A stretch of 64,000 bases of DNA, taken from contig BQUP01000009.1 of NCBI GenBank assembly GCA_022835595.1, positions 434,001-498,000 of the forward strand. The letters run 5' to 3'. Source of the stretch: Cystobasidium ongulense (Eukaryota > Basidiomycota > Cystobasidiomycetes > Cystobasidiales > Cystobasidiaceae). Numbering within the stretch: position 1 is the stretch's first letter; each line of letters opens with the position of its first letter. Below, one piece after another: positions 36,363-44,006 of this stretch. A program made the translations under genes and the position numbers. The notes beneath the pieces are model-generated. The model was not told where the DNA came from. It saw only the letters and a program-made list of their open reading frames with translations, and did no database searches.

Positions 36363-36436
36363 CGCTGGACTTCATGCTTTCTGATCGTTACTGATCATAC
36401 TACTAGGCATGCACTCTACCGCTGAGTTATGGGGGC
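36363..36436 (-). pseudogene. truncated tRNA-Thr(AGU) copy
   Basis: Minus strand starts GCCCCCATAACTCAGCGGTA and carries the D arm, anticodon stem, AGT anticodon, a 22-nt intron with two substitutions, the 3' anticodon stem and the variable loop as far as GTCCAGCG. There the match to the intact copy at 43933-44026 stops. The T loop, the 3' T stem and the 3' acceptor strand are replaced by unrelated sequence, so it cannot fold as a tRNA. Confidence 0.8.
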
Positions 36437-36972
36437 TGAGTTATTGGCTCTTGTTGTTGAAGATCCGAACGGATACAGACAGTATATTGGACTGCTTGGA
36501 GCGAGACGTACCTGTGCCGATATCGGTCCGAGCTACCGTTATATAGCAACCTTCCATGCACGCCCTGTAACGGGACGCTTGTTCGGTCGTCAGCCCGCAC
36601 TAAGGGTAAGGATAGATTACTATGCGCCAAGAAATTTACAAGCAGTAGTCTTCTCTCACTCCTGAGTTGTATGCCATGGCGTGAATACAAGTTCGCGAAA
36701 GACGACAGTGCCTAGGACAACATTATCATCGAAATGGTGATGTGCTCAATCAGATATTAAGGGTTGGTCTTCAAACTGCCCCTTCTATGCTTAGCTGATC
36801 AAATATGTCTTTAGACTTCCTCACGGCAGTTTGTCTATCAAGGCAAATGCCATCTTCCCAAGAGCCAGGCGATGGTTCGAGTGAGTGAAGGGAACGACGT
36901 TACAAGCATAATGCAACAAAATGGAACGATATAGTACAGGGGTATCCAACTGCATTTGTATGTATTTGCTCA
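36363..36972 (-). repeat. left arm of ~610-bp inverted repeat
   Basis: Reverse complement of 43396-44006, about 96 percent identical by eye, with scattered substitutions and one short divergent patch (about 36745-36785). The outer end is the 5' half of a tRNA-Thr; the inner end runs straight into the 10-N gap at 36973. The arm follows the 3' end of TIM54. Confidence 0.9.
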
Positions 36973-36982
36973 NNNNNNNNNN
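36973..36982. other. assembly gap, 10 N
   Basis: Ten N, probably a nominal gap length. It lies exactly between the last readable TIM54 codons and the left inverted-repeat arm, so the TIM54 stop codon and unknown sequence are missing. Confidence 0.98.
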
Positions 36983-38653
36983 AGACCTTGAATGTCTCAA
37001 ATCTAGGATCCCATGTCACTTTGCTGCCTGCTCTTGTCATTAACCATCCTTGGAAGTCATTGGCCCACCGTCTTTCTTTGGTCACTCTCTCCTCGACAAG
37101 TTCCTGTTCTGTTGGAGGAGGATACTTTTGTTCTTCTTTGGTAGGTAAGCGATCTCTATTCGCTAACTCGCGTGCAGTCTTCAGCTTTTCAGGCAGATTG
37201 TCATAGAACTCTTTGCGCTGTGAAACGATATTAGCTGGCGTTTCGCTAAAAGTCTTTCTATAGTGATATTCCTCTTGAAGACCAGTGTCGAGGTCTTTGC
37301 TGCCGGTTACCGGCAAGGGGAAGCCATCCCATTCTTCAAGGAGTTTCTTCTTCTTCTCGTTCAAGACGTCCTCCAATTGCACAGACTCTTCCTCCTTGTA
37401 GTTTGTTTGTTCGATGTCTTTAGGTGGTTGTATAGCTCTAAGGCCACGACGAATCTCTTCATCTTCCATGAATGTGACAGCTTGGTTCTGCTGTGGGTGC
37501 ACAGCTTGGATGATTGAAAGTGCCGTCTCACAGCCCTTTTGCACGCGATACCGCTCAAAGAATAGAAACTTGAACATTTTCGCGGGCCAATGTCGGAAAT
37601 AGCCCAGCGGGTGGTCGAAAGATAGGAAGAGCAGAGGAGGTTGTGTTGGAATAGTGGTAACTGCTGGAATGATGAGCGATTTGCTTTCCAATGGGTCATT
37701 GGAAGTGGAAGCGACGGGTGGTGAGGGAGGGTGGTAGAAATTGAAAGAGGCGACTGGTGGCATGAGCGATGATCGTGGCTTCGCAGGCGCCCCAGACGAG
37801 GATCCTTCTTCTCCATCCAAACTTTCCATGTCAAGGTTTCTCGGCACCTCGTCAAATGTTCCATCTTTGGCCAATTCCTCCCGCAGATCTTGCATTTTGC
37901 CTTCCTCGCCCCGCTCCTCTTGTACAGCATCAAAGTCTGTAAGCCATCCGTGCTTCAAGCCCCATAGATATTCCTTCATGGTATTCCTTGCAACTATGAC
38001 CGTCAGACCTTGCGCTTGTGCAAAACGGCGGTTGTCGAGGTATTCTGCATAGCCTGCTTCACCTGGAGTCACTCGGGGTTGCGGCGTCATATTGGCGATT
38101 CTGTCCAAGCGTATCCGCTCGGCAACTCTTCGTCCAAGGGCTCCAGGCGCTGTGCCATTCAGGAAGGAATAGTCGTAGCCAGCAGCATGCAGTATGGGCT
38201 GCATAGGTGATCGAAGAAGTTGGAGGGTCAGCTACGTTCAATAGCAGCTACATGCAGGCTACGGCATACCTGAATATAATTTTTGAACCATCTGTTCCCT
38301 CTGTCATTCTCGCCGTCATCCGGCACTCTTGTGCTCATGATCCAGACCTTCCTAGGGAATTCGAGCTCGTCCTTTTCGACATCCCCAGAATTCGGCATGG
38401 GTGCGTCCGCTAGATGGCGGACTTTCGCCTTGTATTGCTCCATAATCTCTTCGGCGCATCGTCTGTCATACAGATAGAATGCAACTGGAGAAGCTGCCAA
38501 CGTCAGGTATGCTGCTGTCTTGCCGGATGGTATAAAGTCTTTCAGAATGTATGGATTGATGCCCAGGAAACGCAGGACCTTGCTCTTCGGCCTTCTTTGG
38601 GGTGGCAGCGGCTTCCGGGGCGGCTTGGAGTCCTCCATATCTGTCAGATCCAT
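36983..38653 (-). CDS. TIM54: mitochondrial inner-membrane translocase subunit Tim54 (3' end in gap)
   Basis: Subunit of the TIM22 complex that inserts carrier proteins into the inner membrane. Exons 38653-38270 and 38198 to the gap; at least 533 aa are readable. N-terminal family block: PPRKPLPPQRRPKSKVLRFL, GINPYILKDFIPSGKTAAYL with one membrane span (TLAASPVAFYLYDRR). Then RKVWIMSTRVPDDGEN, PILHAAGYDYSFLNGTAPG, RRFAQAQGLTVIVARNTMKE, RHWPAKMFKFLFFERYRVQKG, and near the end GWLMTRAGSKVTWDPRFETF. The frame then enters the N gap; the true C-terminus is not in this copy. Next to 43215-43379 a decayed copy shows what the missing end may look like. It lies downstream of YME1 on the same strand; in yeast Tim54 also supports Yme1 assembly. 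Confidence 0.92.
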
Positions 38654-38658
38654 GGCTG

Positions 38659-42500: not shown

Positions 42501-42592
42501 TGAAGCGCCGGAGGGCAAAGCCTGGGAAGAACCAGCGGCGCCGGAGCAGCCGTCCGCCGACAGCATGGCGCCCTTAGAGAGCGTGGTCGCAT
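39548..42592 (-). CDS. YME1: i-AAA mitochondrial metalloprotease Yme1
   Basis: Inner-membrane AAA protease facing the intermembrane space; degrades and remodels membrane proteins. Nine exons: 42592-42412, 42349-41920, 41866-41044, 40983-40806, 40747-40541, 40485-40284, 40217-40093, 40028-39932, 39869-39548; 854 aa, all phases agree. Arg-rich presequence (MRPRSLRAPCCRRTAAPAP). An N-terminal helical domain, a Ser/Gly-rich linker and one membrane span (LFLTFLTLTLLSFMI). AAA: Walker A GPPGTGKT, Walker B IIFIDELDAVG, sensor GATNFPESLD, second region of homology RPGRFDRHIVVP. Protease: HEAGH zinc site, then LDVAFGGRAAEELIFG with the third ligand region TTGASSDISQATKIA. The first intron could be joined in other ways; only the 42412/42349 pair keeps frame. 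Confidence 0.94.
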
Positions 42593-43214
42593 GTAGAACA
42601 AAGCGTTGATGTTCGAAGGTGATTGTCAGAGGAGGCGGAAGCAAGAAGGGAAGAACTCCAATATGTGGGTTGTGCGATGCGATCGGGTTAGACCGACTCA
42701 CGCATAGTTGGAAACACAGGTCAGGCGCGTTCCAACTTTCTCCTCGTCAAGTTCTGCTAGAGTTCGAATACCTCGCTGGTATGGAAGAAACGAATGTGGA
42801 AGATACCGATGTTTGTCATTCCCATCAGCGTCAGTTACGGAAAGCCTTGGGAATCGATAATGCTGCTGCGTTGTTGCGAAACTATGCAACCACTGCAAAT
42901 GGGCTTCTCACGGCTCCGAAACTACTCATCGGATCAGAGTCACTAACGCGGAAGGACTCTGACCTGGGCTTTGTACAGTCCCCTTCGCGGATTGTCATAG
43001 CGCCCAGACTCAAGAGGCATACAACGACTTCATGAGCAACTTATGCAATGCAAGAGAGCGATGAAAGCTGAGATTTCTCAATAACAAAATGGCTCTCAGA
43101 GAACATAGAAGCCTGCCGAGAGTCCGGCTCAGGCCTTGGCAGTTGGCCGTTATGATAGTACTATGAAATGGTAGCGTATACCAGATAAAGCAATCAGTAG
43201 AGAACGACGGAGAC
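42593..43214. other. YME1 upstream region with a short plus-strand frame
   Basis: Contains an 85-codon ATG frame at 42781-43038 on plus (MEETNVEDTDVCHSHQRQL..., ending RLKRHTTTS). It has no domain and no clear splice partner, and lies in the YME1 promoter; I do not call it a gene. The rest is unremarkable. Confidence 0.4.
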
Positions 43215-43379
43215 CAACACCAACCATCTTTGAAAGACGACAAGAGCAGGATTTAAGGTCACATGCAATGCGAAATTAAATTCGAGATATTCAAAGTCGT
43301 GGATCTGGATACGGCCAAAGCTAGCAGAGAGAAGTACGGGTTCGTCGCGGAGACGCAGGATGTACAGGAATTGTCATAA
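43215..43379 (+). pseudogene. decayed 3' fragment of TIM54
   Basis: Plus strand carries ACAAGAGCAGG, then AAGGTCACATG, then a frame reading IKFEIFKVVDLDTAK... to a TAA at 43377-43379. This parallels the last readable TIM54 codons (TRAGSKVTWDPRFETFKV, 36983-37060 on minus). The frame is disturbed upstream (around 43260-43275), so it is not a working gene. It sits directly before the right inverted-repeat arm, as TIM54 itself sits before the left arm. The tail after FKV has no counterpart elsewhere in the window, because that part of TIM54 is in the gap; calling it the TIM54 C-terminus is inference. Confidence 0.6.
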
Positions 43380-43395
43380 TCGGATATGTATGGCC

Positions 43396-44006
43396 TGAGC
43401 AAATACATACAAATGCAGTTGGATACCCCTGTACTATATCGTTCCATTTTGTTGCATTATGCTTGTAACGTCGTTCCCTTCACTCACCCGAACCATCGTC
43501 TGGCTCTTGGGAAGATGGCATTTGCTTTGATAGCCAAACTGCCGTGAGGAAGTCTAAAGACATATTTGATCAGCTAAGCACATACATGGGGCATTTTGGA
43601 GACCGTCCCAAATATCTGATTGAGCACATCACCATTTCGATGATAATGTTGTTGTAGGCACTGTCGTCTTTCGCGAACATGTATTCACGCCATGGCATAC
43701 ATCTCAGGAGTGAGAGAAGACTACTGCTTGTCAATTTCTTGGCGCATGGTAATCTATCCTTACCCTTAGTGCGGGCTGACGACCGAACAAGTGTCCCGTT
43801 ACAGGGCGTGCATGGAAGATTGCTATATAACGGTAGCTCGGACCGATATCGGCACAGGTACGTCTCGCTCCAAGCAGTCCAATATACTGTCTGTATCCGT
43901 TCGGATCTTCAACAACAAGAGCCAATAACTCAGCCCCCATAACTCAGCGGTAGAGTGCATGCCTAGTAGTAGGATCAGTAATGATCAGAAAGCATGAAGT
44001 CCAGCG
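43396..44006 (+). repeat. right arm of ~610-bp inverted repeat
   Basis: Matches the reverse complement of 36363-36972. It begins TGAGCAAATACATACAAATG after the TIM54 fragment and ends inside the T stem of the tRNA-Thr (after GTCCAGCG). Most of it is non-coding; an 87-codon frame is open in both arms but overlaps the tRNA and shows no protein features. Confidence 0.9.

What the first reader, a model, noticed from the sequence alone, without database searches (positions are those of the whole stretch)
36363..44006. 7.6-kb segment with TIM54 and YME1 lies between two ~610-bp inverted-repeat arms built on a tRNA-Thr
36363-36972 is the reverse complement of 43396-44006 at about 96 percent identity, in an otherwise single-copy region. 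The right arm ends inside an intact tRNA-Thr and the left arm inside a broken copy. Such an arrangement could flip the TIM54-YME1 block by recombination between arms, or be a recent inverted duplication started at a tRNA gene. The N gap at the inner end of the left arm means a mis-join is also possible.
Basis: partly seen in the sequence, partly recalled or inferred. Interest (0 to 1): 0.75.

Follow-up and report, generated by a model that had tools for sequence, protein, structure and literature searches.

The report
Gene block between mirror-image repeats
In this fungus's genome a 7.6-kb block with two mitochondrial genes sits between two mirror-image copies of the DNA that follows one of those genes; each copy ends in a different broken gene, which suggests that the block was flipped in the past and that the copies have since exchanged sequence.

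Summary
The arms 36363-36972 and 43396-44006 are reverse complements (96.1% over 612 columns) and the only two copies found in the 19.8-Mb genome. The tRNA reads as Thr(AGU), whole on the right, cut after 74 of 94 bases on the left. New: the right arm is preceded by a decayed, frameshifted relic of the TIM54 3' end (about 43201-43379). So the repeat is 'TIM54 3' end - spacer - tRNA-Thr', cut reciprocally: TIM54 kept and tRNA broken on the left, tRNA kept and TIM54 broken on the right. The relic gives the 10-N gap a natural content (about 97 bp, TIM54's last 27 codons), so a mis-join is unlikely. Identity is about 64% in the relic, 97.6% in the arms outside a 34-column island at 71%; this step points to gene conversion after an older duplication. 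Best reading: inversion of the TIM54-YME1 block with inverted duplication at its ends (staggered breaks, or truncated duplication plus crossover), then homogenisation, like the Saccharomyces flip/flop region. Present flipping and ancestral order could not be tested.

The parts
36363..36972 (-). left arm: 3' flank of TIM54 plus the first 74 of 94 bases of a tRNA-Thr copy (T-arm and 3' acceptor strand missing)
   Evidence: 96.1% identical to 43396-44006 over 612 columns; tRNA bases 1-74 only; no Rfam tRNA hit
36973..36982 (.). assembly gap of 10 N; inferred true content about 97 bp: the last 27 codons of TIM54 including the stop, plus about 16 bp
   Evidence: N run; only gap in 264 kb; size inferred from the relic and from homologue P0001
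36983..38653 (-). TIM54, seen as two open segments (36984-38204 and 38228-38653); C-terminal end lost in the gap; start codon not verified
   Evidence: PF11711 in both segments (60.5 bits above and 28.0 bits below the 34.7 cut-off); 83% identity to P0001, aligned up to its residue 409 at 36984
39551..41880 (-). YME1 (i-AAA protease), several segments; its 5' part upstream of 41880 not resolved
   Evidence: AAA, AAA lid and peptidase M41 matches in 4 of the 8 segments scanned; best PDB match of 40070-40501 is YME1
43201..43379 (+). decayed relic of the TIM54 3' end, frameshifted, 16 bases before the right arm
   Evidence: tblastn of P0001 residues 392-435 to 43245-43376, 50% identity, E 2e-9 in the window; E 1.1e-6 in the whole genome; DNA 63 of 99 columns to the left TIM54, E 5e-5; frames
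43396..44006 (+). right arm
43578..43610 (+). island of divergence (34 alignment columns, 10 of the 24 differences) inside the right arm, read as unconverted
   Evidence: 0 of 20,000 shuffles reach this clustering (the width was chosen after seeing the alignment)
43933..44026 (+). intact tRNA-Thr(AGU) with a 22-nt intron; no second complete match found in the genome at E<=1

Best explanation
The TIM54-YME1 block was inverted in the past, and the inversion, or a truncated inverted duplication followed by a crossover, left a copy of 'TIM54 3' end - 0.55-kb spacer - tRNA-Thr' at both ends. Each end kept one whole gene: TIM54 on the left, tRNA-Thr on the right. Since then ectopic gene conversion between the arms has kept most of the spacer and the tRNA 5' part nearly identical, while the TIM54 relic and one 34-column island kept the older divergence. 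The present arms are a substrate for further flipping. Shown: two copies, reciprocal truncation, relic, step in identity. Inferred: that the block is inverted relative to its ancestor, gene conversion as the cause of the step, and any present flipping.
For: Reciprocal truncation: the TIM54 relic lies beside the intact tRNA on the right, TIM54 itself beside the cut tRNA on the left. Step in identity: 36 of 99 columns differ in the relic against 14 of 578 in the arms outside the island, Fisher P 3e-22 (counts, test). The island (10 of 34) is as diverged as the relic, P 0.53, and its clustering was reached by 0 of 20,000 shuffles. Two copies only. Published analogue in which homogenisation of the arms by conversion is proposed to re-invert a block: PMC9731477 (abstract, passages and section 10). 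Staggered breaks leave duplicated fragments at inversion ends: PMC5080602 (passages).
Against: No sister genome could be read, so the ancestral order is not known. A duplication without inversion, followed by loss of the redundant left tRNA end, gives the same picture. Left TIM54 and relic can be compared over only about 99 columns because the rest is in the gap, and that figure comes from an optimised local alignment; with longer flanks 2 of 200 shuffles score as well. The island alone could be one local multi-base event. The longest clean run in the arms (152 bp) is not unusual (3,866 of 20,000 shuffles), so there is no sign of a very recent tract. The outer flanks show no homology (137 of 200 and 72 of 200 shuffles at least as good).
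Confidence: 0.55

Rival explanations
1. Inverted duplication without inversion: a copy of TIM54 3' end - spacer - tRNA-Thr was placed between YME1 and NOP1; with two tRNAs present, the left one later lost its 3' end; arms homogenised by conversion.
For: Only one intact tRNA is needed, so loss of the other is expected; the anatomy is explained equally well.
Against: Needs an independent second break that happens to end the left homology inside the tRNA; no trace of homology beyond it.
Confidence: 0.25
2. Assembly artefact: the contig on the left of the gap is wrongly joined to the TIM54 contig.
For: The only gap in 264 kb lies exactly at the inner end of an arm, a position expected by chance with P about 3e-4; the 92 bp next to it are identical to the right arm, so repeat confusion at that spot is likely.
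Against: The relic on the right shows a TIM54 tail followed by this arm sequence, and the two contig ends leave out just that tail; no other TIM54 tail was found in the genome; 21 mismatches and an unbroken single-copy outer flank make the left arm a real second copy.
Confidence: 0.1
3. One young duplication event with no conversion; the relic simply decayed faster than the arms.
For: A dead gene copy evolves freely, and the comparison rests on about 99 columns.
Against: The spacer has no known function in either copy and should be about as diverged as the relic; it is 97.6% identical against 64% (Fisher test).
Confidence: 0.07

Closest known systems
Saccharomyces 24-kb flip/flop region of chromosome XIV (PMC9731477)
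   Same: Two inverted repeats that contain a tRNA gene (tRNA-Ile there) flank a gene block; arms are homogenised, conversion is proposed as the cause and inversion as a by-product (abstract, passages and section 10 seen).
   Different: There the arms are 4.2 kb and hold two sporulation genes each, the region has 15 genes, and both orientations are seen in strains. Here the arms are 0.6 kb, the protein gene at their edge is cut in one copy, and only one orientation is known.
Staggered-break inversions of Drosophila (PMC5080602)
   Same: Duplications, including gene fragments, in inverted orientation at the ends of the inverted segment (passages seen).
   Different: There the non-inverted arrangement is known; here it is not, and the arms appear to have been homogenised later.
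Human polymorphic inversions between inverted repeats (PMC3961182, search listing only)
   Same: Inverted repeats as substrate for recurrent inversion.
   Different: Population data exist there; none here.

Membership tests
staggered-break inversion | inverted duplication at both ends of the segment | tested here: met
staggered-break inversion | each duplicate is intact on one side and truncated on the other, reciprocally | tested here: met
   TIM54 relic and whole tRNA on the right; TIM54 (end in the gap) and cut tRNA on the left
staggered-break inversion | segment inverted relative to outgroups, which have one copy | not testable with these tools
   the genome tool holds no relatives of this genome (note) and metagenome scans were capped at 0; TIM54 relatives in viral contigs: none
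flip/flop region with homogenised inverted repeats | arms far more alike than the age of the duplication predicts | tested here: met
   97.6% in the arms outside the island against 64% in the relic, on about 99 relic columns; no tree of arms from several strains was possible
flip/flop region with homogenised inverted repeats | both orientations occur in the species | not testable with these tools
   one assembly only; needs strains or long reads
mobile element | further copies in the genome | tested here: not met
   two places only; left outer flank single copy

The most novel reading that the evidence does not exclude
An active flip switch: conversion between the arms keeps re-inverting the TIM54-YME1 block in this species, as in Saccharomyces, but with arms of only 0.6 kb and a tRNA-Thr gene at their outer end. 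Each crossover would also exchange which TIM54 end, whole or relic, is joined to the whole tRNA gene and which to the cut one.
Probability: 0.15. Interest if true: 0.65.

Novelty: new member of a known kind. Interest (0 to 1): 0.42.

Why it matters
At this locus both genes cut at the ends of a probable inversion can still be read. It may carry an internal clock: the unconverted relic and island would show the age of the duplication, the rest conversion since. It makes a clear prediction about gene order in sister species and, if flipping is shown, would add a basidiomycete case with a tRNA gene in the arms to the conversion-driven flip/flop arrangement known from Saccharomyces.

Tried and rejected
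A mobile element was rejected because only two copies of the arm were found. Homology of the outer flanks was rejected (137 of 200 and 72 of 200 shuffles at least as good). A weak match between the left outer flank and the YME1 upstream region was dropped although it looked unusual under loose gap costs (1 of 200 shuffles; 1 of 490 other window segments): under stricter costs 440 of 490 segments score at least as well; the opposite orientation gave 15 of 200. The relic test with long flanks was weaker (2 of 200 shuffles) than with 200-nt segments (0 of 200). TIM54 similarity upstream of 43200 was not supported (39 of 200). A second, fused tRNA at the left boundary, suspected from a B-box-like word, got no support (no tRNA hit; no other copy of that stretch in the genome). 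Relatives of TIM54 in viral contigs: none. Prior reports: TIM54 + YME1 + inverted repeat gave 0 papers; I saw only the listed titles and abstract starts (not every paper counted was listed), and among those only analogues.

Full report
The window lies at C9:434001-498000 of a 19.8-Mb assembly with 19 contigs. The proteins point to a basidiomycete; the closest TIM54 with a species name is that of Mixia osmundae at 38% identity. Around the block lie ZW10 on the left (33373-35205) and fibrillarin/NOP1 on the right (45173-45517), both on the minus strand.

Arms. 36363-36972 and 43396-44006 are reverse complements with 21 mismatches and 3 gap columns in 612. The genome search found no third copy, and 264 kb around them hold no other inverted pair longer than 133 columns at the settings used. 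The right arm ends in a complete intron-bearing tRNA (Rfam 54.3 bits). Programs disagree on its anticodon (Tyr, Ser), but the stem given by Rfam and a canonical intron position give AGU, threonine. The left copy stops after base 74 of 94, before the T-loop, and no tRNA model matches there. Two of the 24 differences between the arms fall in the tRNA copy, both in the inferred intron.

The relic. Homologue P0001 shows that TIM54 should continue for 26 residues and a stop beyond the point where the sequence enters the N gap. Such an ending exists on the other side of the block: 43245-43376, + strand, matches residues 392-435 of P0001 at 50% identity, E 2e-9 in the window, and it is the only other TIM54-like place that the genome search found (E 1.1e-6). 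DNA similarity to the left TIM54 starts near 43201 (63 of 99 columns, E 5e-5; 0 of 200 shuffles as good with 200-nt segments, 2 of 200 with longer ones). It carries a frame change and a stop inside, so it is a relic. Its final stop lies 16 bases before the right arm.

Consequences. The repeat unit is TIM54 3' end, about 0.55 kb of spacer, tRNA-Thr. On the left TIM54 is whole as far as the gap lets it be read and the tRNA is cut; on the right the tRNA is whole and TIM54 is cut. Neither copy, as it stands, can be the plain source of the other. The relic also explains the gap: by its measure 97 bp are missing between the two contig ends, just TIM54's tail. The gap is the only one in 264 kb and sits on an arm end (chance about 3e-4), so repeat confusion during assembly probably caused it, but the order of the contigs is what the relic predicts.

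Age and homogenisation. The relic differs from the left TIM54 in 36 of 99 columns, the arms outside one island in 14 of 578 (Fisher P 3e-22). The left TIM54 is presumably under selection and the alignment is optimised, so the contrast is if anything understated. The island, 10 differences in 34 columns, is clustered beyond all of 20,000 shuffles (width chosen after the fact) and matches the relic in divergence (P 0.53). Such a mosaic is what gene conversion between old duplicates leaves. The longest clean run outside the island, 152 bp, is not unusual (3,866 of 20,000 shuffles).

Mechanism. A staggered-break inversion yields this reciprocal truncation in one event; so does a truncated inverted duplication followed by one crossover. 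Both put the ancestral order at ZW10 - YME1 - TIM54 - tRNA-Thr - NOP1 (my deduction). A duplication with later loss of the spare tRNA end needs no inversion and remains possible. The Saccharomyces flip/flop region is the closest published analogue that I found, with a tRNA-Ile gene in its arms and conversion proposed as the cause of re-inversion (PMC9731477, abstract, passages and section 10). Inversions by staggered breaks with duplicated gene fragments are described in Drosophila (PMC5080602, passages).

Limits. No sister genome or reads could be examined. Whether both orientations exist is open.

Noticed in passing
44695-44845: Near-perfect hairpin with 58 pairs in its stem, -93.8 kcal/mol, z -14.2 against 200 shuffles; no other place found in the genome. 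Rfam hits below the curated cut-offs to several miRNA precursors probably reflect only the long hairpin. It lies downstream of NOP1 and might be a small-RNA source.
   Followed up: partly
62598-62671: Short tandem repeat with a period of about 6 bases, seen as shifted self-matches.
   Followed up: no
G000:C9:513919-516025 and 517279-519403 (outside the window; L016, L017): Direct repeat of about 2.1 kb at 73% identity, two copies about 1.3 kb apart; perhaps a duplicated gene, not examined.
   Followed up: no
G000:C9:430113-430156 (outside the window; L014): 44-bp palindrome, 91%.
   Followed up: no
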